The position numbers and the translations under genes were made by a program. Of a DNA stretch of 64,000 bases, positions 1 to 64,000 are shown piece after piece. The DNA is from Limonium bicolor (taxonomy: Eukaryota; Streptophyta; Magnoliopsida; Caryophyllales; Plumbaginaceae). The stretch lies in NCBI GenBank assembly GCA_023374045.1, contig CM041780.1, forward strand, positions 171,364,085 through 171,428,084, given 5' to 3'. Below the pieces are notes generated by a model, which was not told the DNA's origin, made no database searches, and was given only the letters and a program-made list of their open reading frames with translations. The stretch's first letter is position 1. Each line of letters begins with the position of its first letter.

Positions 1-484
1 TATAAAAATGTGTAATGGGTTAATGAAACTAACATGATTTAGGGTTGTTTAATTAATGCTAAAACCATGTTAGGATTGTATGTAGGAAGTGGGGAAGAAA
101 TGGGTAAGGAAGGAAATGAAAAACAAGGTCTGTAGCAACATTCTGCTACCGACCGACCCAGAGGCTGGATCGGTCGGTGGGTCGGCCGGGCTTGAATTCT
201 CGGTTGTCGAAGTTTCTGACTTCGACCGACCCAGAGGTTGGGTCGATCGGTGGGTCGGTCGGAGCTTAGACAACGGGACTGAATCTTTCTGTAACGGACC
301 GACCCAGAGGTGTATGGGTCGGTCGGAATAGTTCTGGGTCGGTCGGGAGAAATTTCAGAGAACGAAAACTTACTGGAATGGACCGACCCAGAGGTTGGGT
401 CGGTCGGTGGGTCGGTCGACCCAAAACTTACAAAAAAAAACTATATGATTATAATAGGTATATATATGTATACATATACATATC

Positions 485-515
<31 letters not shown>

Positions 516-2053
516 AGAGCACCATTGTTAAGTAAGGAAACAATCTTAAAGTAAGCAAACAATGTGTAAGTGTAAGAATTGTAATGACTTAGTAAGTATG
601 AGTTAGGAAACGTAAGAGTAGTCGAGTTAAGTTAATGATAGTTAGATTAATCACTCGATTGTATGTATATAATAGGATTTGATTTGTGAACACCGAAGGA
701 ACGTCGGATACAAGTACAACGGTGAACGGTATGAATTTCTCATGCCCCGTATGCTTCCTTGGTTACTCTGATTTGTGTGTTGTGTGCTAATTGATCACCA
801 AATAAGATAAATGCACGAATCGGAGTTATCATGTTTACTTGTGAATATGTAGTGTTGTATCTCGTTGTATATTAGCTTTAAATTATAGTTTATATAATTC
901 ATGAAATGTATGGACGAATATGAGTGTGTGTATGTATGATGCAATGTACTGTGACCGAATGTGTTTGTGATTGGACTTTTAACTGATTCCTAACAAGCTA
1001 ACCAATCTAACTTAAATTGGTAATTAAATTGGAATGAGTAGAAGTCCGATATAGTTTCGGCCACGCGTGAGGATGCGGAGACACAAGAGGTTGGATCCAA
1101 GTCCTGACTCTTAAACTGGTCCGCGGCCCAAATCCCTTAAATGGGTAGCATCCCGGATTGGTGAGTCAAGTAAATCCCGGTGGTGGGACGGTGTCCCCGG
1201 GCCGGAGGTCATACCGACTTAACATGAGTAAAAGTAAGTAAGTAAGAATGAGTAAGTAAAGTAAAGGAAAGTAAGTAAGTAAAGTAAGAGTAAGCAGTGT
1301 GTAATGAGTAAAAGAGTAAAAAGCATTCCGATTAACCCGGATGCGTAATTTGGCTAACACTGTGAAGGTAAGTAATGTGTATGTTATTGCAATGTTGCCT
1401 TGGATTGTGTAATGTATTGTATAGGTATGTATGTTGTATGCAAAGCATGTATGTATGAAATTAATGAACCGTATGTCTATCCGACCTTAATTAGTCGGCG
1501 TGCCCTTGTTAGCACGCGGTATATGCGAAGTTCATGCGCAGCTTTTGCTGAGCCCCTTGGGGCGATGTTTTTAATATGAATGCAGGTACACGAGAAGGGT
1601 GAAGATGATGAAGGCTTAATTTCATTTCTTTTGTCTGTAAACAATGAATTATGAATGGTGTACTATGTTGTACACGGCTGTAGGTTTGTGTTAGCCGGTG
1701 TACCATAGGGTACACCCTTTTGGATAATGATGGTATTGGAATTGGGTATAAATGAGTAGCTTGTAGGAACTCATTAATTTTTGGTAAACTTGGAAATGAT
1801 GTAACTGAATATACTTTGGCACTCGGTAATCCATTAATGTAAGTATTTGGTATTCGGTATTTGGTAAGTAATGTAGTAGCTCGGTATACTATGCCATCAA
1901 ACCATCACTGTAGGTAAGGTAAGCCTAGCTAGCGTATGGGCGGTTAGCGGCGTTGTGTCACCCGCCGTAGTAGTAATAGTCTTCCACTGCGAACGGATAG
2001 GATTAAAGGGATGATTGGACGGTAAGCATAGGATTAACGGTAGGGGTGTTACA
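1..2053 (+). repeat. Element A 5' LTR (left part outside the window)
   Basis: The stretch repeats near 10340-11061 and 13279-14090. It ends in GGGGTGTTACA, five bases before the primer site, as expected for an LTR ending in CA. It contains a GACCGACC/GGTCGGTC inverted-repeat array (147-425), a TA-rich run (460-520), a possible TATA element (TATATAAT, about 664-671), a GTAA microsatellite (1225-1290) and a conserved GCTGAGCCCCTTGGGGC box (1547-1563). No protein-coding gene is seen; the short open frames are array translations or chance. Confidence 0.9.
147..425. repeat. GACCGACC...GGTCGGTC inverted-repeat array in LTR A
   Basis: At least four spaced units consist of GACCGACCCAGAGG followed by the near-complement TGGGTCGGTCGG, separated by unrelated spacers. 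Each unit can fold as a GC-rich hairpin and is rich in CpG. The 3' LTR copy repeats it at 10493-10768 with point changes. It lies upstream of the TA-rich, probable promoter part of the LTR. Confidence 0.9.
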
Positions 2054-2058
2054 AAAAG

Positions 2059-2070
2059 TGGTATCAGAGC
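2059..2070 (+). other. Primer binding site, initiator tRNA-Met type (element A)
   Basis: TGGTATCAGAGC begins five bases after the LTR end and is complementary to the 3' end of plant initiator tRNA-Met, the usual primer of Tekay/Del and other gypsy elements. The next bases (GTAG) depart from the perfect complement. The stretch 2071-2263 is untranslated leader with no gene. Confidence 0.9.
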
Positions 2071-2263: not shown

Positions 2264-2927
2264 ATGTCAGGATGAGGCCGAGGCTGAACTAGAGGTGAGA
2301 CCTTTGAGGGACCTGGCGCGCAGACGATAGCTGAGATCGTCGTCGCCACGGTAGCGCAGATGCTACCGCAAGTAATCAATGCTATGCAACAAAACAAACA
2401 GAACCAACAAACTCAAATGGGACCAATCCCGCCCCCTCCACCCAGAGATGTAAACTGGGTAAAGGCCATCGCAGATCTCCGTCCTCCATGCTTTAGAGAC
2501 GAGAGCGATCTTGCTACACTTGAATCCTACATCTCCGAAATGGAGACCGCATTTGAAACCCTCGAATGTCCTGCTGGAGTTTGAGTGAGATTATCCGCCT
2601 ACTACCTCAAAGATGCAGCCATATTGGTGGAAGCTAATAAAAAATGAGCATGTCAACGACCCCACATTCGATTGGGAATCCTTCGCATCACTCCTCCGAT
2701 CCAAATACTATCCGGAGCATGTGAAAACCAAGAAAAGGCTAGAGCTGGATGCCTTGAAAATGACAGAGAAGATGTCTGTCGACGAGTATTACCGCACCTT
2801 CACCTCCATCCTCCATCTTCTACCCGACCTTGGGTACACCGGGCAGGTGTTGGTCGATCGCTTCTATGGCGGTCTGAGCCATCGCCTGCGGTACGGTATG
2901 GGCTACACCAGGTTTACCTCCCTTCAG
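2264..2927 (+). pseudogene. gag: Gag, exon 1 of element A (capsid part), broken
   Basis: Gag packages the element RNA in cytoplasmic virus-like particles. The frame starts at ATG 2264 with an Arg/Gly-rich N-terminus in which two CGA codons appear as TGA (2273 and 2285). It continues in the same frame through a Pro-rich stretch to a capsid-like segment (RPPCFRDESD) and a further TGA at 2582. After an indel near 2590-2640 the frame is open again from 2613, with the retrotransposon gag signature (DWESFASLLRSKYYPE, MSVDEYYRTF). It ends at a putative donor CAG|GTAAAT at 2928. The start is chosen because Gly/Arg-rich MSG-type starts are typical of chromovirus gag. Confidence 0.75.
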
Positions 2928-2999
2928 GTAAATATTGGTTTAAACCCTTAGTACCATCATAATTCCGTGAATACTTTATTTTTACCTCTATCTCTTTAG
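2928..2999 (+). other. Putative intron 1 in gag of element A
   Basis: The 72-base AT-rich stretch runs from CAG|GTAAATATT to a pyrimidine-rich CTCTTTAG and interrupts gag. It is not gag-like and has stops in the capsid frame. Reading phase across it is off by one base in this copy, probably because A carries indels, so the call is less secure than for intron 3. Confidence 0.5.
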
Positions 3000-3309
3000 A
3001 TAAGAATCCCGGCTAATACCTGAGACTTCAGGAGTGTTATCACGCGGCCTCTCGCGTTGAGATCACTTGCCAACTGAGGGACGAAGAAACCGCGCTGAAG
3101 CGCAAAGCTAACAACAAAAACACTAGTGCCGAGGAGTAGAACCATGGCAAGAGCTGGAAGAAGAAGAAGGAAAAGTTCTTCAATCAAACCCAAAAGAACT
3201 TCCCAAGTGAGAGCAGTGCCCATGCCGGGCAGGGCAAACCAGTTGAGCTTCTTCAACTAGGTTCTTCTGCGCCGGTGGCAGCGAAGCCACTGAGATCACA
3301 CCCACCCAA
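3000..3309 (+). pseudogene. gag: Gag, exon 2 of element A, broken
   Basis: This continues gag after the putative intron. The readable frame contains CQLRDEETALKRKANN, a basic Lys-rich region and a Ser/Ala-rich linker (LGSSAPVAAKP), as expected between capsid and zinc knuckles. In-frame stops occur early (TAA, about 3014-3016) and at the TAG after SAEE (about 3136-3138). It ends before a putative donor AAGG|GTAAAC, in phase 1. Confidence 0.6.
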
Positions 3310-3396
3310 GGGTAAACTTCTACTCCTAATCCGTATTCGTACAAGTATAATATCTAGTATATCCACGCGCAAATGTGCCAATTTTCTAAACCTTAG
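3310..3396 (+). other. Putative intron 2 in gag of element A
   Basis: The 87 bases start GTAAACTTCT and end with TTTCTAAACCTTAG. The following exon begins GTTCTGGCTCC. In element E the corresponding exon also begins GTTCTGAGTC right after an AG (63934-63935), so the acceptor position is shared by two diverged copies. The join is phase 1. Confidence 0.6.
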
Positions 3397-3741
3397 GTTC
3401 TGGCTCCGGTTTCACCAAAAACTTCTCTGATGGCCGCGCTTACGTGTGCCGAAAGTGCAACCAAGACCATCCCGGCAAGGATTGCCAAGGGAGAGAAATC
3501 CGGTGCTACAATTGTTAGAAGCCCGGACACCGAGCCAACGTTTGCCCTAAAAATGCCAAACCCAGAGGAAACTTCCAAAGCTACAAGCAGAGGGAAGGCA
3601 AGGAGGTTGCATCTGGCGATGCACCGACCCAACAGGCACCACAGGGACAGGGATCCCGGGGTCCTCTGAGGGGCGCACCCCAGAGGCAGCCTGTCTTGCA
3701 TGTTATTGACCGTGACGGGTCCGGTTCTAAGTCTGGCCCAG
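3397..3741 (+). pseudogene. gag: Gag, exon 3 of element A (two zinc knuckles)
   Basis: This is the nucleocapsid part of Gag, which binds RNA. It has two CCHC-like knuckles: CRKCNQDHPGKDC and CYNC-stop-KPGHRANVC, the second broken by TAG near 3516. A Gln/Gly/Pro-rich tail follows, ending at LHVIDRDGSG and SGP, where a putative splice donor AG|GTAATT sits. Element E has the matching exon at 63592-63933 with almost the same length. Confidence 0.75.
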
Positions 3742-3898: not shown

Positions 3899-4630
3899 GA
3901 AGCTTTAGTGTCTGCTATCCAATACCTTCGAAACCAAATCAAGAAGAGACCAACATCACCACTACTCCAGTGAACAGTGTCAGGTCATCTGCCCAGGTAT
4001 GATTTTATTAAGGGGATACTTGACACCCGAAGCACAAATCTCAATTATTCGACGATGCAACGAGTTAGGAACGGGTCAAGGAGGATTTATACACCCGAAT
4101 TCCCCGGTGGAGCGAAGATGAAGCTGAAAATGATGTGCTTGGGAAAGGACTGGAATCCTTATACCAAGACATACCAAGAGACACGGAAGCAAGACGGAGC
4201 AACGCCACCAGCAATACCTCCAGAGTTTCAGACACTTGTCACGCAAGCAGTAGAACTTGCACTACAATGCGAACATGATCTGATTCCCGCACTCGAAGCG
4301 GACCTTTGTATCGTCAACTTCAATGAGAAAGAAGGACGACTTGGGTTACACCAAGACAAGGATGAGACAACGGAATCTCTTGAACTAGGAGTGCCCGTAG
4401 TGTCTTGGTCCGTTGGTGATGACGCCGTATTTGTGTATAGCGAGCAGAAGCGTGTGGACCTCGCACAAAAATTGGTATTGTGATCAGGAGATGTCCTCAT
4501 CATGGGTGGAAACTCTAGGATGCTGTATCACGGGATCAACAAGATCAAGTTGAATACGGCACCGCCGGCAATAATCAATGCCACACACATGAAACCAGGA
4601 CGCATGAACCTTACCTTTAGGAAGTATTAA
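3899..4630 (+). pseudogene. AlkB-like (ALKBH1-type) Fe(II)/2-oxoglutarate dioxygenase, broken copy in element A
   Basis: AlkB-family enzymes oxidatively remove methyl groups from DNA or RNA bases using Fe(II) and 2-oxoglutarate. Visible motifs in order: PGMILLRGYLTPEAQ, a GGF/YTPEFPGGAK segment, LKMMCLGKDWNPY, the Fe-binding HxD in GLHQDKDE, VSWSVGDDA, SGDVLIMGGNSR, the distal His in YHGI, and RxNxTxR in GRMNLTFRKY at the end. One base is missing near 4092 (the frame switches between GGF and YT), an earlier frame shift lies near 3950, and an in-frame TGA is at 4481-4483, so this copy is a pseudogene. It lies between gag and pol of a retrotransposon, in the same orientation. The copy in E is better preserved. 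Confidence 0.85.
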
Positions 4631-4771: not shown

Positions 4772-6165
4772 GTTGTGGACTCGGTACCAAAGGTAACCTG
4801 AGTATCCTCACCGAAGCGTAAGCCGGTAAAAGTGGCACCATCTTAACGGGAACCTTCCCAGTGAACGACATTGATGCCTCAGTGTTATTCGACTCCAGCG
4901 CCTCTCACACCTTCGTATCACCATCTTTTGTGAAGAGGTTGGGGCTAGATGCGGATGAGCTACCGAATTTCCTGGTTACTCTCCCATCGAAGGAGCGAGT
5001 ACGATGTACCAAACATTACAAAGCAGCCACAATCCAAATCAAAGGCGAAGCGTTTCCCATCTCCTTCATCGAGTTCAATGGGTTGGGATTCGACTTGATA
5101 ATTGGAATGAATTGGTTGGAGCAGCACAAGGGTAGAATCCTCTGTGCCGAGCATCAATTGCTGCTCAAGAGTCTTTCTGGGGTTACCGTATCTTACCGCC
5201 AGAGACCGAGAGAGCCTTCGACCACAGTCATCTCCGCTATGGCCATGTACCGGGAGCTTAGAAAGGGCCATGAAGTATATTTATGTTATGTACAAGACCT
5301 GGAGAGAGATCCAGAGTTCAGTGAGGATGTACCGATTGTATCCGAATTTCCCGATGTATTCCCTAAGGAGCTATCCGGCATGCCACCTCAGAGAGCAGTA
5401 GAATTTGAGATTGATCTCCTGCCTGGTACCGGTCCCATTGCTAGGGCACCGTACCGTATGGCACCTGCTGAAATGACAGAACTGAAAGAGCAATTACGCG
5501 ATCTTCTCGACAAAGGGTTCATACGCCCGAGCGTATCACCCTGGGGAGCACCGGTCCTCTTCGTGAAGAAGAAGGACGGTAGCCTCCGACTTTGTATTGA
5601 CTACCGCGAGTTGAATGCGGTCACAGTCAAAAATAAATACCCATTACCACGCATCGACGACCTATTCGACCAGCTGAAAGGAGCCTCAGTCTTCTCCAAG
5701 ATCGACCTCCGTTCTGGGTATCATCAGATTGCTATCAAAGAGCAAGATATTGAGAAAACGGCATTCCGTACCAGATATGGCCACTACGAATTCACCGTCA
5801 TGCCATTCAGTTTGTCAAATGCACCAGCAAAATTCATGGATCTAATGAATCGTCTATTCAGTGAGCAGTTAGACACTTCAGTTGTTGTCTTCATCGACGG
5901 CATCCTAGTATACTCAAAATCAGCAGAGGAACATGAAATTCACTTGAGGAAAGTGCTTGAGACACTGCGAGAGAACCAGCTGTATGCGAAGTTCTCCAAA
6001 TGCGAGTTCTGGCTAGATCAGGTATCATTCCTCGGTCATGTCATCTCGAGCGTAGGCATTTCAGTTGACCCTTCTAAGATAGAAGCTGTACGATCATGGC
6101 GTAGACCTAGACTGTTACCGACATCCGGAGTTTTCTTGAAGCCGGTTACTACCAAAGGTTTGTAA
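4772..6165 (+). pseudogene. pol: Pol of element A: protease and reverse transcriptase
   Basis: Protease cuts the polyprotein; reverse transcriptase copies element RNA. The exon-like start follows CAATAG|GTTGTGG. The frame opens with GLGTKGNLSILTEA, a TAA stop, then the protease region ([14 protein letters not shown]). The retropepsin motif DSG has become DSS. RT blocks follow: [65 protein letters not shown] and [11 protein letters not shown]. The catalytic FxDD box therefore reads FIDG, so one metal-binding Asp is lost. A frame shift near 6105 ends the frame at 6165, just after the thumb region (VSFLGHVIS). Confidence 0.9.
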
Positions 6166-6672
6166 AGGACTTCTCGAAAGTCGCTAAGCCCATGACTACA
6201 CTGATGAAGAAAGATGCACCGTTTGTATGGACAGACGAGTGCGAATTATCATTTCAGAGCCTAAAAGACTCATTGACCTCAGCGCCCATCCTTACTCTTC
6301 CAGAGGGCACAGAGGGATTTGAGGTATATTGTGATGCATCAGGCAAAGGAATGGGATGCGTACTCATACAGCATGGCAAGGTTGCAGCTTATGCCTCCCG
6401 CCAACTTAAAAAGCATGAGGAGAAGTACCTGACACACGACTTAGAGTTAGGAGCCATTGTCTTCGCCTTGAAGATATGGCGACACTATCTCTATGGGGTA
6501 TGCATCACCATCTACTCCAACCATAAGATCTTACAGTATGTATTTACACAGAAAGAATTAAACTTGAGACAGTGAAGGTGGATGGAGTTTCTCTTAGACT
6601 ACGAGATCGATCTACAGTATAAGGAAGGGAAGGCAAACATTGTAGCCGACGCCCTGAGCCGTCGAGCACACT
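6166..6672 (+). pseudogene. pol: Pol of element A: RNase H
   Basis: RNase H removes the RNA strand during cDNA synthesis. The region begins with the connection [18 protein letters not shown] and shows [14 protein letters not shown] (first Asp), [13 protein letters not shown] (Glu), IYSNHKIL, where the third Asp of the usual TDHK is Asn, and NIVADALSRR (last Asp). A TGA at 6573-6575 interrupts LNLRQ-RWMEF; element E has Arg here, so CGA to TGA is likely. It is continuous with RT upstream and integrase downstream. Confidence 0.88.
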
Positions 6673-8147
6673 CGCTCCATTCACTACTCGCTTCTTCTAG
6701 CTTGGTTGACGAGGTGCGAGACGCTCAGTTGAGCGACCCTTACCTAACCGAAATCAAACAAAAGATTGAAAATGGTACATTTGAGAAGAAGAAATATGAT
6801 TTTAAGTTGCATGAAGATGGTCTGATTCGGCTGAATGGCAGGCTATGCGTACCCCGAAGCAATGCTGAGCTAAGGGATCGCATCCTGCGAGAGTCACACA
6901 GTTCCATATTGTCAGTCCATCCAGGAGCCTCCAAGATGTACAAAGACATGAAGAGGTACTTCTGGTGGTCTGGAATGAAATCAGATGTGACGGAATATGT
7001 ATTGAGATGCTTAACATGCCAGAAGGTAAAATTTGAACATCGTAGACCGGGCGGAATGGTACAATCGATGCCAGTTCCAGAGTGGAAATTTCACGATATC
7101 TCCATGGATTTTGTTGTAGGACTCCCACCTGCCAGGGGAGAACTCAACATGATCTAGGTTGTAGTCGATCGCCTCACCAAGGTTGCCAGATTCATACCGA
7201 TGAAGGACACTTGGAAGGTAGTGAAGCTCACAGAGCTATTCGACAAGGAGATCATCAGACATCACGGAGTCCCTAAAACTATAGTATCTGACCGTGACAC
7301 CAGATTCCTTTCGAGATACTGGAGAGCTACACGGGAAGCGTTGGGTACAGAATTGAAGTTGAGTACCGCCTTCCATCCTCAGACCGACGGTCAAACAGAA
7401 AGAATCATCCAGACGCTGGAGGACATGCTTCGGGCATGTGCCTTAGACTTTCAGGGGAGTTGGTTAGATAAGCTTCATCTTATCGAGTTTTCGTATAATA
7501 ATAGCTATCACGCTTCGATTAAGATGTCGCCTTTCCAAGCCCTATACGGTAGACCTTGCCGTACACCCTTGTGTTGGGATGAGTCAAGCGAAGCGGTCAT
7601 CATAGGACCGGAGTATTTAGAACAAGTCCAAGCGGAAGTGCAACAAATCCGAGCCAATATGAAGGCAGCCCAAGATAGACAGATATCCTATGCGGATGTG
7701 AGACGACGTGACCTTGAGTTCACCGTGGGCGACCAAGTGTTTTTGCGTGTTTCACCTATGAAGGGCGTATTCCATTTTGGTCAGAAGGGCAAGCTAAGCC
7801 CAAAGTTTGTAGGGCCGTACACTATCACCGAAAGAGTTGGATCCGTAGCCTATAGGTTAGCACTACCTGAGGACTTGGGACGTGTACATGATGTCTTTCA
7901 TGTGTCACAACTCAAGAAGTATATCGCTGATCCTTCTCATGTCCTAGAGCCTGAGAGACTATCCATTAAGCCGAACATGAGATATGTCGAGACCCCTGTG
8001 AGAATCCTTGATAGGAAGACCAGAGACACTCGCCATAAGTCTATACGAATGGTGAAGGTCCTATGGTCAAACCATGATGTTGAAGAAGTGACATGGGAGT
8101 TGGAAGATGCCATGAAGGCGAAGTACCCACAATTATTCATAGACTAG
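6673..8147 (+). pseudogene. pol: Pol of element A: integrase with C-terminal chromodomain
   Basis: Integrase inserts the cDNA; the chromodomain is thought to guide insertion to marked chromatin. It shows an HHCC zinc finger ([13 protein letters not shown] to CLTCQKVKFEH), catalytic Asp in [11 protein letters not shown], Asp in IVSDRDTRFLSRYW and Glu in GQTERIIQTLEDMLR. Then come the GPYTITERVGSVAYRL module and a chromodomain (VKVLWSNHDVEEVTWELE) at the C-terminus. A TAG at 7155-7157 replaces Trp (W in element E at NMIWVVVDR). It ends with TAG at 8145-8147. The chromodomain places the element among chromoviruses, most like Tekay/Del. Confidence 0.9.
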
Positions 8148-10492: not shown

Positions 10493-10768
10493 ACTACCGA
10501 CCGACCCAGAGGCTGGATCGGTCGGTGGGTCGGCCGGGCTTGAATTCTCGGTTGTCGAAGTTTCTGACTTCGATCGACCCAGAGGTTGGGTCGATCGGTG
10601 GGTCGGTCGGAGCTTAGACAATGGGACTGAATCTTTCTGTAACGGACCAACCCAGAGGTGTGTGGGTCGGTCGGAATAGTTCTGGGTCGGTCGAGAGAAA
10701 TTTCAGAGAACGAAAACTTACTGGAATGGACCGACCCAGGGGTTGGGTCGGTCGGTGGGTCGGTTGAC
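10493..10768. repeat. GACCGACC...GGTCGGTC array in the 3' LTR of A
   Basis: This is the same four-unit array as at 147-425, with a few substitutions such as GATCGACC and GACCAACC. It confirms that the array belongs to the LTR. Confidence 0.9.
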
Positions 10769-11061
10769 CCAAAACTTACAAAAAAAAACTATATGATTAT
10801 AATAGGTATATGTATATATATGTATACCCACATATACATATGTACATATATATATGAGAGCACCATTGTTAAGTAAGGAAACAATCTTAAAGTAAGCAAA
10901 CAATGTGTAAGTGTAAGAATTGTAATGACTTAGTAAGTATGAGTTAGGAAACGTAAGAGTAGTCGAGTTAAGTTAATGATAGTTAGATTAATCACTCGAT
11001 TGTATGTATATAATAGGATTTGATTTGTGAACACCGGAGGAACGTCGGATACAAGTACAAC

Positions 11062-53857: not shown

Positions 53858-56040
53858 CACCCCCACACTTATCTTTTTGCTTGTCCTCAAGTAAAACCAT
53901 GTACCCAAGCAAGTAGGGAATGCTCAATACTAACAAATATTATTATGAAGGGTAGGATAAAGAGGTGAACAGTACATGATCTTTTAAACTTTTCGAGGAG
54001 TGTGATCCATCAACTGCTGGTGGCACAGGTGTACTCAGGGTAAAAATAAAAATTAGAGTTTCGGGGTATGATCCGGAGTACTTCAATGCTTCTTAGTTAA
54101 GGTGACTTTGAGAACTTTTACCATGGCCAACTTCTCTCAAGAATGGGCATTGAGGAGAAACAAAAGGAAAAATAGATTTATGCATTTGTTTCACTTTTGC
54201 ATAAGAGATGAGAAGATAATATGTAGGCATCAAGCCTTTGTTTTTAAGAACACTCAACTCTCTTTGTTGGTTACCAATGGTGTCTCGCAAGTCCCTTGCT
54301 TTTTTTTTTGGTTTTTTTTTATAGAGAAGCACCCTTAGCAATCCCTAAGAAAGAAGACAGAAAGAACCCTTGAGCAATAAAAATCCAACCATTGCAGATC
54401 ATTTGGTCACACCGCATTGAAAATGCTCCTCAAAAGCAATCAAAATTTTTAAAATTTTTGTACCATTTATCCCACAATTCATAACAGTATTTATTCATAA
54501 AGAGAACAACCCACATCAGCAGGGTCCATAATTTAAATTTTTGGACTAACAAGATAAGCAGAGAGATTAAACATTTTAGCATAAAATTTCACCGAAAAGG
54601 GTTCTCCCCCACACTTAAGCTGGAGCAATGTCCTCATTGCGTAGGAAGAATTAAATTAACGAGGTCATGCAATCTACTAGAGTTCTCACACTATGCAAAG
54701 CAATAGGGAGTATGTAAAAATTTTAAGTGCAAAGCAAGGAGAATGTACTCCCCAGAGTTCGCAGAGTGTGTAGAGTAGCTCCCCCACACTTGAGTTCAGC
54801 TGTAGGAATGTGCAAGATGTTCCTGTAATAAATATTCTAAACAGCCAGAAGAACTCAAGTTAATTCTCCTCGTTCTCTCTCCTTTCTTTTTTTTATTTAT
54901 TTATTTTACATATATATATGGAAGAAATAACATAAAACAAAAATAGTAGGATAATAAAATGTAACCACTGGGTTGCCTCCCAGTAAGCTGCCCGTATTTA
55001 TAGTCTTTGGCTAGACTCCCGCTTCGTTATCCTGGATCAAAAATAAAAGTAGAAAATAGCTTTGCCAGGAAGACGAAGTTAGTAGTAATTATAAACAAAT
55101 CACCTGGATCAAAACAAAACGTCACCTCGACAAATAAAATAGGAAAAATACTCCACAAAACCTGGTGTCTAAGGAGGTACTGCCGATAACGTAGTTATAA
55201 CAGAAGACCGGTGGAGATGGCTTTTCTTCCTCAAATTGGAGGATGTAAACATCCTCCTCTTGTAGTTGAGGCTTATAGAGGCAGGGTGGAAGTTGATGTT
55301 GTAGCGGTGGTTGCACGTCGTCGCCGGAGTTGCTGCTGCGGTGCGTCGGTGGTGAAGAGTAGAGTAGAAGAAAGAAAATAAAATTCGGGAGCGTGATAAT
55401 TTTTTTTTTGCATGCTGGGCGCGTCCGTCCTTCGTCCGTGCAAATAAGGGCGGACGCGTTTGTTTCCTGTCTTGCGTCCGGCTTGCGTCCGGCCTTTTAA
55501 GGGCGGACGTGAGCTCCGTTCTTTTTTTTTCGTTTTTATTATGTGTCCGTGTTTGTGTCCGGCTTTTTAAGGCGGGACACAACTAAACTTTTTTTTTTTA
55601 TAAACCGAAAACATTGAAACAGAAAGAAATAAAATAAAACAAAGTAAATGCAGTAAATAATGAAAAGATAAAGGGCAAAATATAAATGATAGGGGAATTT
55701 GAATGACAGGAATTTAAAGAACTGGAATTTAAATGACAGAATTTAAATGACAGGAATTTAAATGACAGAAATTTAAATGACAGAAATTTAAATGTTAGGA
55801 ATTAGATGATAGAATTTAAATGTTAGAAGTTAGATTGCTGAAATTAAATGTTAGAAGTTAGTAAACCAACAAACATAATAATATAAACAAAATATAGTAG
55901 ATAATTAGTATAAACAATAAACAACATAATATAAACGTAATATTAACAGAATAAAGAAAACAGAATATTATAATATAACAGGTGAATTATCCGGGGCTTA
56001 GGGACTAGAATAAATCTAGTCCCCGGCAGCGGCACCATTT
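53858..56040 (-). other. Element F internal region 2 (non-coding)
   Basis: This is a near-identical copy of internal region 1 with small indels (for example one extra AATTTAAATGACAG unit near 55735-55760). Primer site at 56020-56037. No gene is seen. Confidence 0.88.
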
Positions 56041-57676
56041 TGCAGACTGTATATTGTGAGAGTAGTTGGAACTGGTGTAAATAAAACAAATGAAAAAAAA
56101 GGAAATTAAAAACTCAAAATAACTGTCGGGCTGCAAACAAAATCTCGGTCGCAGTAGTATAGTAAAATGTAAGCGACCGGATATCGAACCGTTGGACTAA
56201 AGGGAATTATCTAATTCCTAAGCGGTGTCACAAAGAGGGGGATTAATTGACTTGTTTAAATAAATAAAAAGGAAACATAAAATAAACTAAGTAAAAGGTA
56301 AATTAAATGGGACTCTGGGTTCAGGTTAATATAATCTGCTCTTTTATGCTATGTCTACCGGTTTAATTATAATAGTTTGGCAAAATTCCTCTTAATATCT
56401 TAAGGACTAAATCATAGACTCAAAAGAACTCGTTTACCAGAAAATGCTCGGTCTAATCTAGATTCAAGCAACACACATGTAAACGAACGGTTTAAATATG
56501 AGAAATTATATTTGCATCTGAAAATACTAACTTATAAAAATAAGCTTTCTCCATATTTACGGCTTAATTAACCTATTTATTTATCACGGGTCTGATCAAA
56601 ATAGATTTAGTAAAGCATTTTAATAAATCCATGTAATTTATTAAAAAGGCGAGAGATAAGCTTTAATCGTAACAAACTGTATTAAAACTAAACCGATAAA
56701 ATATATTGCATAATTAATACAAACACATAATAACCATTCCCAGAGTATAGATATTCTAGTCTAACATATTAAATAGACAAATAGAAACAAGAGTAGTCGA
56801 AATCATCGACTCCTGGATTTATTCTGCTATTTGTATACGTAGGACTAGAGGTGGATAAGGTGGAATGAAAAGAAAACAAAATGGAGAAGACGGGAGAAGA
56901 GAAATGGGATGAACGTGTGATTTGTGGTTTAGTGGATCGATGATGGATGGATTTCATGAACAAGCAGTGGGTTTATATAGAAGAAAGGAGGAGGAAGAAG
57001 ACAGAACTGGCGACAGAGCTGGAGACAGACGCGTGAGGGATTTAAGGTAGGCGCCTGATATGGTTTATGGAGTAGATGGATATGTCTGCAGGCAAGTCGG
57101 CGAAGAAAACCAGTCGACAGTTTCTGGATCTGGGTTGCATTTATTTCCTGTCCGTGCTTTTTTTCACGGACTCATTTATCTCTTGTCCGTCCATTTTTCC
57201 ACGGACATATTTACTTCTTGCTTCAGTCCGCCCCTTGTCCGGTCCTGGTTCCGCGGACAAGACCCGGACGCTACATGCTCTGTCCGGCCTTTGTAATGCG
57301 GACAAGACACGGACGCTCTAAGCTCTGTCCGGCCTTTGTAATGCGGACAAGACACGGACGCTCCAAGCTCTGTCCGGCCTTTGTAATGCGGACAAGATAC
57401 GGACGCAAGTCTTTGACTCGTTTTCTTTTGCGAACTTTGACCGGCTCTAGATTCTTCGTTTGGACTCCGTTTTTCGAGCCGTTTGCGCCTATGCGTTCGT
57501 CTCTTTGTCTACTTTGCTCCTAGCTTGGTTTTCCTCATGTTTAATCAATAAATTTGTGAGATAACCAATAAAACATAACTAGAGGAAAACTAATCAAAGT
57601 GGAGAAATGAGCAAGAAAAGTGCTTATATAATATATGAAATACACCTATAAAACATGCTCATTTGGACACTTATCA
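56041..57676 (-). repeat. Element F LTR 3 (5' terminal copy)
   Basis: The plus-strand ends are TGCAGACTGT and ACACTTATCA, then the TSD GGTAC. The array (57147-57410) lacks a roughly 30-base block present in the other two. TATA box on minus at 56972-56979. Confidence 0.92.
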
Positions 57677-57681
57677 GGTAC

Positions 57682-58305
57682 TCAACTTCAATTATATACT
57701 CAGCGCTTCCCTTGTAGCTCTCCAGTACCTCGAAAGGAATCTGGTATCTCTGTCAGATACAATGGTCTATGGTACTCCATGGTGTCTCATGATCTCCTTA
57801 TCAAATAGCTTAGCTAGCTTAGTTACCTTTCAGGTATCCTTCATCGGAATGAATCAGGCTACCTTGGTCAGGCGATCCACTACAACCCATATCATGTTCA
57901 GACCTCCCCTGGTAGGTGGGAGTCCAACCACGAAGTCCATGGAGATGTCATGAAACTTCCACTCCGGAACTGGCATCGACTGTACCATTCCACCCGGTCG
58001 TATTTTACCTTTTGCCATGTGAGACACCTCAAAATGAACTCGGTAACATCTGCCTTCATCTCCGACCACCAGAAGTACCTCTTCATGTCTTTATACATCT
58101 TAGAGGCTCCCGGATGGATAGAAACTGAAGAAAAGTGTGATTCTCTTAGTATGTGCTATTTCAGATCAGCGTTGTTGCGTGGGATGCATAACCGGCCCTT
58201 AAGTCTGATCAGATCATCATCTTGAAGTCTGAAGTCATATTTCTGACTCTCAACGGTACCCTCTGTCAGCTTCTGTCTGACTTCCTTCATGTACTCATCG
58301 CTCCT
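57682..58305 (-). pseudogene. pol: Element E integrase N-terminal half
   Basis: It has a zinc finger ([13 protein letters not shown] to [10 protein letters not shown]; the last Cys of HHCC has become Trp), then [13 protein letters not shown] (first Asp) and DRLTKVA. After a TGA in place of Trp come EIMRHHGVP and TIVSDRDTRFLSRYW (second Asp). Several stops are present (KDT-stop-KV, VP-stop-TI). F interrupts it just after LKLS. Confidence 0.85.
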
Positions 58306-58773
58306 CTAAGCCTCTCGCACCTTATCAACCAAGCTCGAAGAAGCAAGTAGCGAATGGAGTGAGTGTGCTCGATGGCTCAGGGCGCCAGCTACTACATTGG
58401 CTTTCCCTTCTTTGTATTGGAGGTCAATGTCGTAGTCTTTTAGAAATTCTAACCATCTTCTTTGTCTGAGATTCAACTCCTTCTGAGTGAATATATATTT
58501 CAAGCTCTTATGGTCTGTGTAGATTGTCACACTAACCCCGTATAAATAGTAGCGCCATATCTTTAAGGTGAAGACTACAGCTCCCAACTCTAAATCATGT
58601 GTGGGGTAGTTTTCCTCATGTTTCTTCTGCTGGTGTGAGGCATAAGCGACCACTTTGCCATGCTGCATGAGTACGCAACCTAATCCTCTGCCGGATGCAT
58701 CACAATAAACCTCAAAGCCCTTCGTATCGTCTGGGATGGTCTGAACAGGTGCGGTGGTTAGTGAGTCCTTCAA
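58306..58773 (-). pseudogene. pol: Element E RNase H
   Basis: The 155-codon frame shows [14 protein letters not shown] (Asp), [13 protein letters not shown] (Glu) and [12 protein letters not shown] (Asp). In the last motif [12 protein letters not shown] the usual Asp of ADALSRR is Gly. A TAG (58774-58776) replaces the Gln found at this point in A (SFQSLK) and separates it from RT. Confidence 0.88.
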
Positions 58774-58776
58774 GCT

Positions 58777-59490
58777 CTAGAATGAACTCTCACAGCCATC
58801 CGTCCATACGAACGGTGCATCTTTCTTCATCAAACTAGTCATCGGTTTTGCAACCTTATTGAAATTCTTCACGAATCTGCGGTAGTAACCTGTCAAGCCG
58901 AGAAAGCTCCTAATGTCGGTAACTGTCTTCGGTATAGGCCAGGTACGTACGGCATCGATCTTTACTGGATCCACAGAGATCCCAGCATCCGAGATGACAT
59001 GACCAAGGAAAGTGACCTGGTCAAGCCAAAACTCGCACTTGAAGAACTTCGCATAAAGCTGGTTCTCCCTCAGTGTCTCCAATACCCTTCTCAAGTGACT
59101 CTCATGCTCAGTTTTCGGCTTTGAATATATCAAGATGTCGTTGATGAAGACCACAACCGACTTGTCCAGCTGCTCCCTGAACAAGTGGTTCATCAGATCC
59201 ATAAATTTCGCCGGTGCGTTCGACAAACCGAACGGCATCACTGTAAACTCGTAGTGGCTGTATAGTGTCCGGAACGTCGTCTTCTCAATATCTCCCTCCT
59301 TAATGGATATCTGATGGTACCCTAATCTGAGATCAATCTTGGAGAACACAGATGCCCCCTTCAACTGATCGAATAGATCATCAATGCGAGGTAGTGGATA
59401 CTTATTCTTCACAGTCACTGCATTCAACTCTCTATAGTCGATGCAGAGGCGGAGACTGCCATCCTTCTTCTTCACGAAGAGAACTGGCAC
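58777..59490 (-). pseudogene. pol: Element E reverse transcriptase
   Basis: The 237-codon frame has [74 protein letters not shown] and [11 protein letters not shown]. The catalytic box reads FIND, so the first Asp is Asn and the enzyme is probably inactive. [11 protein letters not shown] and [15 protein letters not shown] follow. A TAG just upstream (59491-59493) replaces Trp of SPWG. Confidence 0.9.
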
Positions 59491-59493
59491 TCC

Positions 59494-60265
59494 CTATGGT
59501 GAAACGCTAGGTCGCACAAACCCTTTGTCAAGCAGGTCTCTCAACTGTTTTTTTAATTCGTTCATCTCAGCCGAAGCCATGCGGTAAGGCGCCTTAGCTA
59601 TCGGTCCGGTTCCAGGTAGCAGCTCAATGGTGAACTCTACCTCCCGAGTGGGTGGCATGCCGGGCAGTTTCCGAGGAAAGAGATCGGGGAACTCCGACAC
59701 TACCAGTAAGTCGGGATCAAACTCGGGGTCTCTCTCTATGTCCTGAACATAGCAGAGATATACTTCCTCCTTCCTCCTCAACTCTTTATACATTGCCATG
59801 GCAGAGATGATCTTGGTCGAAGGCTCTCTAGGCCTCTGGCGGTATGATATTGCTACCCCAGACGGACTCCTGAGTAGCAGTCAGTGCTCGGCGTAGAGGA
59901 TACGACCCTTGTACCGCTCCAACCAGTTCATCCCGAATATTACATCAAACCCCAAGTCTCTGAACTCAATCAAGGTGATCGGGAATTCTTCTCCCTTGAT
60001 TCTGATGGCGGCTCCTCGGTAGTAGCGAGTGCATCGAACCTTCTACTTAGACAGGAGCGTAACCGTGAAGTTGGGTAGCTCGTCAGCGTCTAGCCCCAAC
60101 CTCCTCGGAAATGATGATGAGATGAAGGTATGCGAGGCCCTGAGTCGAAGAGGACTGATGCATCAACACCATTAATCGAAAAGGTGCCGGTGAGGATAGT
60201 GCCGCTTGCGTCGGCCTGTGCCTCTGTAAGAATGCTTAGTGCACATTCCGTACCGAGTCCATGAC
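59494..60265 (-). pseudogene. pol: Element E protease and linker (start of pol exon)
   Basis: The exon-like start after ACATTAG|GTCATGG reads GHGLGTECALSILTEAQADA, then [16 protein letters not shown] and SVLFDSG, the retropepsin active site with DSG intact. A one-base loss right after DSG shifts the frame. The linker from about 59799 ([40 protein letters not shown]) is open to SVSP at 59494. The stretch 59800-60110 is protease body with stops in this copy. Confidence 0.8.
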
Positions 60266-60343
60266 CTAATGTATTTCACAAGCTTTCATGAGTATTGATG
60301 GTATAACAAGAGTCTTAACAATTAACATGAACAACACTGTTAT

Positions 60344-60349
60344 TTTATT
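60344..60349 (-). promoter_or_regulatory. Possible poly(A) signal after the AlkB unit (element E)
   Basis: The minus strand reads AATAAA within TTATCAATAAAATAACAG, 62 bases after the AlkB stop and before the putative pol acceptor. It is at the same place as in A (4700-4705). Confidence 0.5.
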
Positions 60350-60411
60350 GATAACCTTCCTTTTTACATTGTGTGCTTCCTCTCTTACATCATACTTAAA
60401 GCATTACATGG

Positions 60412-60905
60412 CTAATACTGCCTAAAGGTTAGGTTTAATCGTCCTGGTCTCATGTGCGTCGCATTGATCACTGCTGACGGTGTTGTATTCAGCTTAATTT
60501 TCTTAATCCCATGGTACAACATTCTTGACTCTCCACCCATAATTAACACATCTTCAGACTTAAGTATTAACTTCTTGGCACGGTCCACACACTTCTGCTC
60601 GCCATATAGGAATTCAGTGTCGTCTCCAATGGACCAAGACACTATGGGTATCCCCCTTTCGAGAGATTCCGCTGTCTCATCCTTATCTTGGTGTAAAACA
60701 AGTCGTCCTTCTTTCTCGTAGAAGTTGACGATACACAGGTCTGCTTGTATGTCTGGGATCGGGTCAGCTTCAAGCTGCTGAGCGATCTCCACGGCTTGTG
60801 TAACAACCACATGGAACTCTTCGGGTATTTCCGGTGGTGATGCTTCGTCTTGTGTTCTCGCATTCTGGTATGTCTTAGCATACGGATTCCAATCCTTGCC
60901 TAGGC
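60412..60905 (-). CDS. AlkB-like (ALKBH1-type) dioxygenase of element E, C-terminal part
   Basis: It carries the catalytic core of a 2-oxoglutarate/Fe(II) dioxygenase that is expected to demethylate nucleic acid bases. Motifs: SLGKDWNPYAKTY, EADLCIVNF, then VLHQDKDE (Fe ligands His and Asp), IVSWSIGDDTEFLYG, SEDVLIMGGESRMLYHGI (distal His) and PGRLNLTFRQY (2-oxoglutarate-binding Arg in RxNxTxR), ending with a TAA stop at 60412. All expected catalytic residues are present and the frame has no stop. The codons just upstream of 60900 belong to solo LTR G2, which splits the exon; the N-terminal part is at 63207-63457. Known AlkB-carrying mobile genomes include plant flexiviruses, but here gag and pol flank it. 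Confidence 0.87.
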
Positions 60906-63206
60906 TGTAACGACCCCAAAACCACCCTGGTTGAGAGACCGTTACACGCCGCATGCTTATTACCTAAGACACGCAAGGCTACACTAGCGAATCCTAAAAC
61001 TAAACAAAATACCCTTTATTTAACAAGTAGCAATTACAATCGTTTACATAGTTTACAATAGCGGAAGCTAGTAAATACAAAAAGGGCCTCAAAGCCAAAC
61101 ATCTAAATACAAAATCAAATCCAAAACTAAAAGCGAAGGCCGAATCTTCAAACACGAACTAAGACCTGCAAATCAGCCGGATATAGGGGTAAGCACAACT
61201 ATTGCTCAGCAGGTGATAAACTTCATCAGCTGAGCACGCTCAAAACATAATCTGAACATACATTTATACTTATATGAAAGCATAGAAAAATCAGAAACAG
61301 AGGCCTTGGAGGAAGAAGGCAGAAACAGAAACTTGATAATCCAGAAGCTCAACCAAAACAAAAGCTCAACAAAATCAGAAGTTTAACCACATCAAAAGCT
61401 GAACGAAATCAGAAGCTTAGCAAATTCAAAAGCATAGATCAAAGCAGAAGACCTTCCAACAGATAGAGGTCTAAAACAGAGAGAGATAAGTGTTGTCAAA
61501 TCAGAAGGAGCAGCAGAAGACAAACCAGAAAGTCCAAGCTTTGCAAACCAGAGACTTCTCAGAAGACGGAAAGCACACAACAGACCATCTCAAATCAAAT
61601 ACACTGAGCAGACGGAAACAGATCACTTAATAAACCAGAGGCTCTCAGAAAACAGAAAGCACAAAGCAGTCTGTCAGAAATCAGAAATAGTCAGAGCAAA
61701 CGGAAAACAGAACACTTAAAAATTAGAAGTGGGACTCTAGCACCAAGCACAAACACTCAGAAAGGGTCGGAGACCCATGGATCTAACAGATCCCTTGACA
61801 ACGCAGAAATGACCGGAAGGCCAAAGGGTTCGTCAACCCTACAGAACAGATTGGGAATGACCCACACTCAGAATGACGTCTACATGGTATACCACGGAAT
61901 AGCTCGACCCAGCCATTCACGGCTCAGAAGCAGAGTAACTAGGTCCCAAAACAAAAGGTTACCAAATAGAAGCTTAACAAATTAGTTCATAAGGTGTTGT
62001 AGAGAACACACACCAAAGCACAAGGCCTTAACACAATGAAAACTGAATCATAGCTGAAACAAAAGTCTTAAACCAGGACTAGCCAAAGTCAAACTAAAAT
62101 CAGAGGCCGAAGCCCACTTTTAGAGTAAAAACAGAGTTCAAAAGACTATCGGTGGCCCTCAAATCAAAATATACTTAAACACATGCCAAAACATGTCAAA
62201 ACAATATAGTACTCAAAAAGAGGAATCCAACACCGCAAATGACACTCAAAACGGAGCTCAAACGAAGAAGTTATGCAAAAACAAAGGCCTGTCCGAACAT
62301 GCGTCCGATCTTGCATGTTCGGACATAAATCAAGAGTCTGAAAATCTGCCGACGCATGATGTCCGAACTTCAATGTTCGGACACATGTTCGGACAATGCG
62401 AAATCTGCAAAATCACTTACGAAAATCAGCCAGAACCAAGCCACAAATCCCCCACCAAACATACATAACTTATTGTAGCAAATTAGCCAATCGAAAACAC
62501 ATTTCCACGGGGTTTTAACGCATCAAACACACATCAAAATCAGCCAAAAACATCACCACTAGAGAATTCAGCAATCATATACAGAAAACTAATAAGAACA
62601 AAAATCCCCCGTGGTTGAACACACCCACCCGAATCCATTCACCACCTACCTCACATCCGAAGCAAAGCAATCTCTGGGGACTCTACGAAACACTCTTCTT
62701 GAATCTCCACTCGAATCTCTACTCGAACCATGAACACTCGATCGAAATTGGGAGAAGACCAATGACGGAGAGGGAGGCGAATAAGCAGCAATCAAAACTC
62801 AAAAATCTCAATTAGAGACCTCACGGACTCGACCAACGAAACAGTAGAACCATTGAATTATAGGAACGAGAGATTGAAGAAGAGGATGAGCAGAGGGAGA
62901 AGAAGTTACACGAAGAGGATGAACGATAGATCTGTCGATGAGAAAGATGAAGGAGAGGGACTAATTGATCGTGAATTAGAATGAGTGAGAGGGAGGAAAT
63001 AAAAATAGATTAATAAATCTCTCCCTTAAGAAAATAATAAATAACAAAAAGAAAGATGACAAATGTAACCCTCCTTCCTCAAGCTAATATATTAACATTA
63101 GGAGAATGTCGTAGACATTCTAATATAAGAGTACAATATAACCCAAACTCCCTTTGTGAATAAGAAAGAAGTAAAATAAAATTTAAAAAAATTCTGGGGC
63201 ATCACA
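60906..63206 (-). mobile_element. G2: solo LTR inside the AlkB exon, TSD taggc
   Basis: It runs from TGTAACGACCCC to GGGGCATCACA, flanked by TAGGC at 60901-60905 and 63207-63211. It is homologous to G1. It contains the GTCCGAAC/GTTCGGAC array (62285-62400) and AG-rich segments, with no gag, pol, primer site or PPT. Removing it with one TSD copy restores the AlkB frame exactly, so it inserted after AlkB was in place. Confidence 0.9.
62285..62400. repeat. GTCCGAAC...GTTCGGAC array in G2
   Basis: It contains GTCCGAACATG with CATGTTCGGAC and GTCCGAACTTCA with ATGTTCGGAC pairs. It is shorter than in G1 but at the matching place. Confidence 0.85.
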
Positions 63207-63457
63207 TAGGCTCATCATCTTTAGCTTCATCTTAGCTTCTCCATGGTACTCCAATGTATAGAAACCTCCCGGTCCCACTCCTAACTGACTGCATCTCATG
63301 ATGATGGCTATTTGTGCTTCGGGTGTCAGGTATCCCCTTAATAAGATCATACCTGGGCGGATAACCTGACACTGATCTTGTGTGATCTCTCGGGTTTCGA
63401 TGTCGGTCTTTTCCGGGTTATACGTTGTAGGTATTGGATAGCAAATATTGAAGTTTC
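63207..63457 (-). CDS. AlkB-like dioxygenase of element E, N-terminal part
   Basis: The exon follows a putative acceptor (TTACTTTAG|GAAAC). With one G from the gag exon it reads 84 codons without a stop. It includes NFNICYPIPTTYNP, a charged linker, QVIRPGMILLRGYLTPEAQ, MRCSQLGVGPGGFYT and KMKLKMMSL, the N-terminal AlkB/ALKBH1-type nucleotide-recognition part. It ends at codon CTA, precisely where G2 entered, and continues in phase at 60900. Joined, the AlkB exon gives 246 codons plus stop. A has the same exon with two frame shifts. Confidence 0.85.
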
Positions 63458-63591
63458 CTAAAGTAATGGTAGGTTATATCTTACTTAAGTTCTAATCATG
63501 TACTAAAATCTTGTCTAACTTATCATTCACTCAAGCATGCATGAAATGTGGTAAGCAGGCAATTTTATCACTTAATGGATTGTAGCGGTAC
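63458..63591 (-). other. Putative intron between gag and AlkB (element E)
   Basis: It runs from donor ACCAG|GTACCG to acceptor ACTTTAG|GAAAC on the minus strand. Phase 1 on both sides gives a continuous Gag-AlkB frame. The same donor also matches the phase of the pol acceptor at 60265/60266. Confidence 0.7.
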
Positions 63592-63933
63592 CTGGTCTCG
63601 ATGAGGGTTCAACCTCATCCCCCCGGTCCACCATATGAAGAGTAGGCCCCGTCTTTTGGGTAACCTGGGGTCCTTTATTGGCTGCAGGCTGTGTCGCCTT
63701 CTGACCGTCGGGTCCAGTATTTTGATCGGTCTTGCCCTTGCCCTTCCACTCGGGCCTGAAGGCTCTGCCCTCAGGGTTTCGGAAACACATGTAAGCTCGG
63801 TGTCCGAGTACTCCACAGAAGTTGCATTCCACTTTATTACCCTTACAGTCGAGTCTAGGGTGGTCCTTGTGGCACCACGAGTAGATGTATCGTCGTTGGT
63901 AGCCACCGCCGGCTCCCTTCCCAGACTCAGAAC
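63592..63933 (-). CDS. gag: Gag zinc-knuckle exon of element E
   Basis: This is the nucleocapsid part of Gag. The second knuckle CNFCGVLGHRAYMC is intact (CX2CX4HX4C); the first reads YSWCHKDHPRLDC and has lost its first Cys to Tyr. A basic tail (RPEWKGKGKTDQN) and LHMVDRGDEVEPSSRPG lead to the splice donor. The exon starts after an AG (63934-63935) as in A. Its 342 bases are close to the 345 of A. Confidence 0.8.
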
Positions 63934-64000
63934 CTGTCCATTATCGATATAGTAATTGTATCTCAATGGTTGCTAAATGATTGTTAATTCACATTAAGGT
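63934..64000 (-). other. Putative gag intron of element E, cut by the window edge
   Basis: On the minus strand the sequence before the zinc-knuckle exon is AT-rich and ends CGATAATGGACAG. It corresponds to intron 2 of A. The donor is beyond the window. Confidence 0.45.

What the first reader, a model, noticed from the sequence alone, without database searches (positions are those of the whole stretch)
60412..63457. AlkB/ALKBH1-type dioxygenase with an intact reading frame inside a chromovirus
Seen: motifs PGMILLRGYLTPEAQ, LGKDWNPY, LHQDKDE (HxD), GGESRMLYHGI and PGRLNLTFRQY lie between the gag zinc-knuckle exon and the protease of element E. After discounting the solo LTR G2 and one TSD copy, the frame is open for 246 codons, while pol of the same element has several stops and a dead RT box. 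Known: HxD, distal His and RxNxTxR are the Fe(II)/2-oxoglutarate residues of AlkB; some plant RNA viruses encode AlkB domains. Inference: a retrotransposon captured an ALKBH1-like gene and may use it to remove methyl marks from its RNA or cDNA, evading host epitranscriptomic or DNA-methylation control.
Basis: partly seen in the sequence, partly recalled or inferred. Interest (0 to 1): 0.96.

Follow-up and report, generated by a model that had tools for sequence, protein, structure and literature searches.

The report
Jumping gene carrying a methyl eraser
In this plant genome a very large family of jumping genes carries, between its coat-protein and protease genes, an AlkB-type enzyme gene (in plants this kind removes methyl marks from DNA or RNA) that natural selection has preserved; it is predicted to be spliced onto the coat protein, where it would likely erase marks on the element's own RNA or DNA copy.

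Summary
The unit in element E is an AlkB domain of the plant ALKBH1 type with its iron and 2-oxoglutarate residues; its frame is open on both sides of a solo LTR that landed later. Element A carries a broken copy at the same place.

A degenerate pattern for the iron motif hits the window's 2.92-Gb genome 17,050 times (reversed control: 0). Of the first 20 hits in genome order, 19 show gag, zinc knuckle, AlkB and protease in that order. dN/dS between subfamilies is 0.075-0.158 where measurable; AlkB and protease have similar dN.

New here: AlkB lies in what is predicted to be the gag-pol intron. One phase-1 donor at the end of gag faces two acceptors of the same phase, before AlkB and before protease, which predicts Gag, Gag-AlkB and Gag-Pol. 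No RNA data were available; activity is untested; how many copies lack AlkB is unknown.

Precedent: orchid Tat/Ogre elements encode an active ALKBH5-type demethylase in a separate ORF (PMC9289625). This one differs in AlkB subfamily, position and predicted expression: a new variant of a known kind.

The parts
63592..63940 (-). Element E: zinc-knuckle (CCHC) exon of gag, ending at the predicted splice donor CCAG|GTACCG (last exon base 63592, phase 1)
   Evidence: ORF 63572-63940; zf-CCHC E=0.0072 (below Pfam cut-off); donor read by eye; same donor type in family copies
63458..63591 (-). Element E: predicted intron between gag and AlkB exon (134 nt), ends ACTTTAG|GAAACTTC
   Evidence: sequence, by eye; acceptor type recurs in family copies; predicted, no RNA data
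63207..63457 (-). Element E: N-terminal piece of the AlkB exon, open frame
   Evidence: its first base follows the predicted acceptor
60906..63206 (-).
60412..60903 (-). Element E: C-terminal piece of AlkB with HxD, distal His and RxNxTxR, native stop
   Evidence: PF13532; model pLDDT 92.1; best match OsALKBH1
60266..60411 (-). Element E: stretch between AlkB stop and pol; holds AATAAA (suggestive only) and ends with the predicted distal acceptor ACATTAG|GTCATGG
57677..60265 (-). Element E: damaged protease-RT-RNase H region
2059..2070 (+). Element A: primer-binding-site motif TGGTATCAGAGC just after the 5' LTR end
2270..3741 (+). Element A: gag (start approximate) in three predicted exons, ending at donor CCCAG|GTAATT (last exon base 3741)
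   Evidence: exons by eye; (donor phase 1)
3899..4630 (+). Element A: AlkB exon, broken (in-frame TGA, shifted N-terminal frame); predicted acceptor CATAG|GAAGC
4772..8147 (+). Element A: protease, RT, RNase H, integrase and C-terminal chromo-like domain; predicted distal acceptor AATAG|GTTGTGG
1..2053 (+). Element A: 5' LTR as far as it lies in the window (start not fixed)
   Evidence: 98.2% over 817 and 95.0% over 727 to pieces at 10352-14090

Best explanation
A family of plant Ty3/gypsy retrotransposons carries, between gag and protease, an ALKBH1-type dioxygenase gene under strong purifying selection that is predicted to be an alternative exon of the gag-pol intron spliced onto Gag, where it would likely erase methyl marks from the element's own RNA or cDNA. 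Shown: the domain, its catalytic residues, its constant place between the zinc knuckle and the protease in the copies examined, its great copy number, and dN/dS near 0.1. Inferred from sequence: one phase-1 donor at the end of gag can join to a proximal acceptor (giving Gag-AlkB, ended by AlkB's own stop) or to a distal acceptor (giving Gag-Pol), while unspliced RNA stops soon after the donor and gives Gag. Inferred without direct evidence: the Gag part would carry the eraser to the genomic RNA and into the particle, where it would demethylate RNA (m6A), or 6mA or alkylated bases in single-stranded cDNA or RNA-DNA hybrids, and so blunt host epitranscriptomic restriction. The gene was likely captured from a spliced plant ALKBH1 mRNA long ago, because the element's exon is unbroken where the host gene of this genome appears to have introns.
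For: Domain: PF13532 E=2.2e-34; best solved relative OsALKBH1 by sequence and by fold (TMq 0.93; model pLDDT 92.1). Scale: 17,050 pattern hits, control 0. Linkage: gag exon 1 and CCHC in 20 of 20 and protease in 19 of 20 copies taken in genome order. Selection: dN/dS 0.075-0.158 in the 7 of 15 subfamily pairs with unsaturated dS; A against E 0.107 on the C-terminal piece; dN of protease 0.161-0.205 in the 4 of 6 pairs that could be computed, against AlkB 0.167-0.210 for the same subfamily pairs. Splicing: donor in gag's phase 1 in 27 of 35 rows with a donor, AlkB acceptor in phase in 33 of 34 rows with one, intron lengths in all three classes mod 3, unspliced frame stopped within 6 codons in 23 of the 27. 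Divergent clade VI: AG|G acceptor before AlkB in 8 of 8 loci, and in-phase G|GTAAG donor in L030, L031, L032, L035 (by eye). Clade II has Leu where the others have Met and no Met before residue 77 in its 4 ORFs (read), so it cannot start there on its own ATG. The 34 scored codons before that Met are constrained between clades (pN/pS 0.17-0.50, 15 of 15 pairs). Host loci L062/L063 show breaks inside the domain that the elements lack.
Against: No RNA or protein data. Activity and substrate untested. Within clade II the N-terminal codons show pN/pS 0.98 (21 and 6 changes). Five of 40 rows gave no donor and six no AlkB acceptor by my patterns (one row, winE, in both), and 8 of 35 donors are out of phase with the knuckle, which I read as frameshifts in decayed gag without checking each; in clade VI L029 and L040 are shifted and L037 and L039 stop earlier. 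L043, one of the six open copies, has lost the AG|G acceptor. The Asn of RxNxTxR is Ser in 3 of 4 clade-II ORFs (L001, L021, L045). AATAAA after AlkB (33 of 40 rows) arises in 7-21% of shuffles and is absent in clade II, so it supports little. Only 6 of 20 copies taken in genome order keep an open AlkB frame. The copies were found through AlkB, so copies without it were not sampled. The element could use the protein on host RNA or chromatin instead.
Confidence: 0.66

Rival explanations
1. The element-encoded AlkB is a repair enzyme: it reverses m1A/m3C-type alkylation damage in the element's RNA or cDNA rather than erasing regulatory m6A, as proposed for AlkB of plant RNA viruses.
For: The fold is closest to OsALKBH1 and then to E. 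coli AlkB, and far from ALKBH5. PMC9289625 (discussion read) cites RNA repair for virus-encoded AlkB.
Against: Nothing here separates repair from erasure. Plant ALKBH1 is reported as a 6mA eraser on single-stranded or unpaired DNA (PMC10469495, abstract and passages).
Confidence: 0.3
2. AlkB is made as a separate protein (own start codon in the intron or a distinct transcript), not as a Gag fusion, as in the orchid elements.
For: Clade III copies L042 and L048 have an in-frame ATG just before the acceptor, and five of the six subfamilies have Met at codon 37.
Against: Clade II lacks that Met; the codons before it are constrained between clades; acceptor and phase are kept while intron length is not.
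Confidence: 0.2
3. The protein acts on host targets (host mRNA, R-loop 6mA, Polycomb balance) to favour the element, not on the element's own nucleic acid.
For: Rice ALKBH1 affects R-loop 6mA and H3K27me3 at genes (PMC10469495, abstract and passages).
Against: A predicted fusion to the RNA-binding Gag points to cis action; no data either way.
Confidence: 0.15
4. AlkB is a passenger: a captured fragment copied along without function.
For: Many copies are broken: 14 of 20 copies taken in genome order have no fully open frame, and A is broken. Pairs of near-identical ORFs (dS under 0.02, 3 pairs) give 0.85.
Against: dN/dS about 0.1 across subfamilies, constraint like that of protease, and both iron His, the Asp and both Arg invariant in 29 intact ORFs.
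Confidence: 0.02

Closest known systems
Phalaenopsis Ty3/gypsy elements with a 2-ODD/AlkB ORF2 (Gypsy_Pa_2799, paALKBH5-like; PMC9289625)
   Same: A plant Ty3/gypsy LTR retrotransposon with an AlkB domain, amplified in its host genome, catalytic residues kept; the orchid protein is an active m6A demethylase in vitro.
   Different: Orchid: Tat/Ogre lineage, ALKBH5-type domain at the C-terminus of a separate 565-aa ORF2, Gag and Pol in one ORF, tRNA-Arg primer site. Here: ALKBH1-type, chromo-like integrase end, TGGTATCAGAGC primer motif, AlkB between gag and protease and predicted to be spliced to Gag. The orchid screen reports no AlkB in the other genomes of its 121 angiosperms.
Plant ALKBH1 (OsALKBH1, PDB 5xeg/5xoi; ALKBH1A-D)
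   Same: Best sequence and fold match; same catalytic motifs and C-terminus.
   Different: The 19 host proteins put in the tree form a separate group (support 99/100); host proteins have an N-terminal extension, and the host loci here show breaks within the domain; E's C-terminal piece is 48-53% identical to the 12 host-type proteins aligned.
AlkB domains of plant RNA viruses (Alphaflexiviridae, Betaflexiviridae, Closteroviridae)
   Same: A genetic parasite carrying an AlkB.
   Different: Positive-strand RNA viruses with the domain in the replicase (recall); families named from PMC9289625; not compared here.
Ogre elements with a spliced intron (PMC6317226, passage)
   Same: Partial splicing in a plant Ty3/gypsy element sets polyprotein production.
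   Different: [quoted passage not shown] here the predicted intron lies between gag and protease and holds one.

Membership tests
AlkB / 2OG-FeII_Oxy_2 (PF13532) | Profile match over the curated cut-off | tested here: met
   119.8 bits against 31.2 for E's C-terminal piece; 169.4 for L011
AlkB / 2OG-FeII_Oxy_2 (PF13532) | HxD, distal His, RxNxTxR | tested here: met
   complete in E; in 29 intact ORFs H, D, H and both R are invariant, but the Asn is Ser in 3 clade-II ORFs
AlkB / 2OG-FeII_Oxy_2 (PF13532) | Fe(II)/2OG-dependent demethylation | not testable with these tools
   needs a purified protein
ALKBH1 subfamily | Closest to ALKBH1, not ALKBH5/9/10 | tested here: met
   5xeg E=1.7e-48; fold ranks OsALKBH1 first, first ALKBH5 at rank 44
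ALKBH1 subfamily | Falls inside the host plant ALKBH1 clade | tested here: not met
   the 19 host rows form one side of a branch without any element copy: an old or fast-evolving sister, not a recent copy
Ty3/gypsy (Metaviridae) | Order protease, RT, integrase; gag with CCHC | tested here: met
   RVP_2 and RVT_1 at 4822-6165, integrase zinc domain at 6576-7157, rve (below cut-off) at 7158-8147; Retrotrans_gag in L011; gag and CCHC
Chromovirus | Chromodomain at the integrase C-terminus | tested here: inconclusive
   Chromo E=4.5e-4 and 5.8e-4, 20.5 and 20.2 bits, below the cut-off of 25.1
Chromovirus | RT groups with chromovirus clades | not tested
   no reference RT set at hand
Orchid AlkB-Gypsy family | ALKBH5-type domain in a separate ORF of a Tat/Ogre element | tested here: not met
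   ALKBH1-type, between gag and protease; orchid features

The most novel reading that the evidence does not exclude
A retroelement has turned its gag-pol intron into a switch: from one donor, three splice outcomes yield Gag, Gag-AlkB and Gag-Pol, so that a nucleic-acid demethylase is tethered to the coat protein, packaged with the genome and used to wipe host marks before or during reverse transcription. That would be a particle-borne eraser, acquired independently of the orchid elements and of plant RNA viruses.
Probability: 0.5. Interest if true: 0.92.

Novelty: new variant of a known kind. Interest (0 to 1): 0.78.

Why it matters
A second, apparently independent acquisition of an AlkB enzyme by plant retrotransposons, from a different AlkB subfamily and in a highly amplified family, would make erasure of nucleic-acid methylation a recurrent counter-defence and not an orchid curiosity. 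It also makes an open question testable: which mark (m6A on RNA, 6mA on cDNA, or damage) restricts plant retrotransposons. The predicted intron switch suggests a way for a Ty3/gypsy element to set the ratio of Gag, accessory enzyme and Pol.

Tried and rejected
Coincidental insertion of AlkB in A and E: rejected, since the arrangement recurs in 19 of 20 copies taken in genome order. Dead capture: rejected by dN/dS. Poly(A) signal after AlkB as evidence for a terminal exon: dropped as weak. Gag-AlkB fusions in annotated proteins: no gag domain in the precomputed Pfam column of the 120 listed of 530 hits; the long top rows P0122-P0125 that I read are multi-AlkB host-like proteins. Viral-contig scan: no relative. 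Profile search of the protein database: among the 120 listed of 3807 hits it found P0002, P0003, P0004 and P0006 again; the rest are at most 54% identical, mostly named plant proteins; unnamed P0243 (54%) was not examined. Host species: size and eight large contigs made me think of Limonium bicolor (recall only; searches did not confirm it). A census starting from pol, to learn how many copies lack AlkB, and a count of the HQDRDE variant (not repeated) did not complete.
Full report
What was checked. The finding places an AlkB-like frame between the gag zinc knuckle and the protease of element E. The C-terminal piece matches PF13532 at E=2.2e-34, and A's frame matches it at 2e-20. By sequence the nearest solved structure is rice 5xeg (E=1.7e-48). 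A model of E's piece (60412-60903, minus; pLDDT 92.1) matches OsALKBH1 first (TMq 0.93) and E. coli AlkB next; the first ALKBH5 structure comes at rank 44. The N-terminal piece is open. Between the pieces lies a 2301-bp TG..CA solo LTR flanked by TAGGC on both sides, so the break came after E inserted. I kept the pieces apart. E's piece departs from two nearly invariant glycines.

Scale. The window lies in a 2.92-Gb genome. The Pfam search scored 150 places there; one row of the 150 shows a stop inside, but these are the best-scoring places out of 38,325 first-look candidates. A degenerate pattern for LHQDKDE gives 17,050 hits and none for the reversed pattern. This is a lower bound for AlkB copies, because another clade reads HQDRDE. 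At about 10 kb per unit (the spacing in tandem arrays) that would be roughly 170 Mb; this is arithmetic, not a measurement.

Linkage. The pattern places are listed in genome order, so the first 20 are not ranked by score, though four of them (L053-L056) form one tandem array. In these 20 (L042-L061) gag exon 1 and the zinc knuckle lie upstream in 20 of 20 and the protease downstream in 19 of 20; L044 gave no protease hit. Six of 20 keep a full-length open AlkB frame: L042, L043, L044, L045, L048, L052. The sample was chosen through AlkB, so it cannot say how many family members lack AlkB; searches that start from pol did not complete.

Selection. Of 61 loci then held, 47 gave an ORF over 180 aa with both motifs and 36 of these reach the N-terminus; 7 were dropped (six places fetched twice, and L033, identical to L032 at another place), leaving 29. 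I grouped these by eye into six subfamilies. Between them dN/dS (NG86, my script, representatives only) is 0.075-0.158 in the 7 of 15 pairs with measurable dS; the others are saturated. Over single pairs (226 of 406 with an estimate) the ratio falls from 0.25 at dS 0.02-0.05 to 0.11 at dS above 1; three pairs with dS below 0.02 give 0.85, as expected for young copies with few changes. The window's A and E give dN 0.158, dS 1.48, ratio 0.107 on the C-terminal piece, one stop codon skipped. Protease dN between subfamilies is 0.161, 0.170, 0.172 and 0.205 (4 of 6 pairs asked), and AlkB dN for the same subfamily pairs is 0.196, 0.187, 0.167 and 0.210. The sample is biased towards open frames, but that filter alone does not make a tenfold excess of synonymous change.

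Architecture (predicted). Gag ends at CCAG|GT with the donor in phase 1. Two acceptors follow: one before AlkB (AG|GA, then ...FNICYP or a variant) and one before protease (AG|G, then e.g. HGLGTE). Of 40 rows (18 hand-chosen high-scoring loci with the exact motif out of 20 fetched, 20 loci in genome order, winA, winE), 35 gave a donor, 27 of them in gag's phase 1; 34 gave an AlkB acceptor, 33 of them in phase. winE is unscored there for donor and AlkB acceptor because the solo LTR lies between; I read those by eye. Intron lengths occur in all three classes modulo 3 (16, 9, 5 for gag-AlkB; 16, 9, 7 for gag-pol), though many rows are close relatives; so the frame looks to be kept by splicing and not by read-through. 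In 23 of the 27 in-phase rows the unspliced frame stops within six codons. Clade VI has AG|G before AlkB in 8 of 8 loci and an in-phase G|GTAAG donor in L030, L031, L032 and L035 (by eye). Clade II has Leu where others have Met and no earlier Met in its four ORFs, so it must be entered from upstream. The 34 scored codons before that Met are constrained between clades (pN/pS 0.17-0.50 in 15 of 15 pairs) and within clades I, III, IV, VI (0.10-0.34), but not within clade II (0.98 on 21 and 6 changes). The prediction is three products: Gag, Gag-AlkB, Gag-Pol. No RNA was available.

Origin. In a tree of 46 rows (16 of the 29 ORFs, E's piece, six unnamed database proteins, 19 host plant proteins chosen, four outgroup rows) the 19 hosts form one side of a branch (99/100). 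All 17 element rows and P0002-P0007 lie outside it; outgroup row P0015 has a very long branch and falls among element rows on weak support, and the root is unsure. P0002-P0007 are 66-77% identical to copies here, so the kind probably exists in other, unnamed sources; that these six lie in retroelements was not seen. This genome's own ALKBH1 loci (L062, L063) show breaks inside the domain, read as introns, that the element exon lacks, which points to capture from a spliced mRNA. L032 and L033, on different contigs, hold identical ORFs. A's LTR pieces are 98.2% and 95.0% identical.

Prior work. PMC9289625 (abstract; results parts 1 and 2 of 3 and discussion; passages) reports Phalaenopsis Tat/Ogre elements with an ALKBH5-type ORF2, active on m6A ssRNA in vitro, and none in the other genomes of 121 angiosperms screened. 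A 2025 review cites it (PMC12786077, passages), as does the Retand survey PMC11963269 (passages). PMC7264820 (passages) has no occurrence of AlkB, chromovir- or intron. PMC6317226 (passages) describes the Ogre intron. Among the titles and abstract starts listed by searches (30 of 69 papers; 10 of 10; 10 of 16; 12 of 54) I saw no other retrotransposon with an AlkB; the library holds open-licence papers only. PMC10469495 (abstract and passages) reports ALKBH1 as a 6mA demethylase on single-stranded or unpaired DNA.

Mechanism. I commit to a Gag-tethered eraser made by alternative splicing. The splice logic is well supported by sequence; the cis role and the substrate are inference. The main rival on substrate is damage repair.

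Lineage. 'Chromovirus' is plausible (chromo match E=4.5e-4, below cut-off) but not established. The TGGTATCAGAGC motif resembles an initiator-Met tRNA primer site by recall.

Noticed in passing
G000:C1 about 1.430-1.462, 4.328-4.349, 7.387-7.419 and 497.439-497.470 Mb: Three or four AlkB units in a row at about 10.0-10.6 kb spacing, i.e. tandem arrays of the element, probably by unequal exchange.
   Followed up: partly
L009-L028, L042-L061; window 2270-3741: gag itself appears split into three exons (N-terminal gag, middle, zinc knuckle), read by eye; it seems unusual for a Ty3/gypsy element (recall).
   Followed up: partly
window 48363-57676: Large tandem duplication, 98.5% over 5.2 kb at a shift of 3.8 kb.
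   Followed up: no
window 10352-14090: A's 3' LTR seems split by a 2.2-kb insertion, of which a 179-bp stretch resembles (77.7%) the solo LTR at 60906-63206.
   Followed up: no
P0122, P0124 (Smallanthus), P0125 (Aegilops): Annotated proteins with two or more AlkB units in a row.
   Followed up: no
L062, L063: Two host ALKBH1 loci with matching exon translations on the same contig C3.
   Followed up: partly
L010 about 300-990: A stretch read as X (N in the DNA) inside a fetched copy.
   Followed up: no
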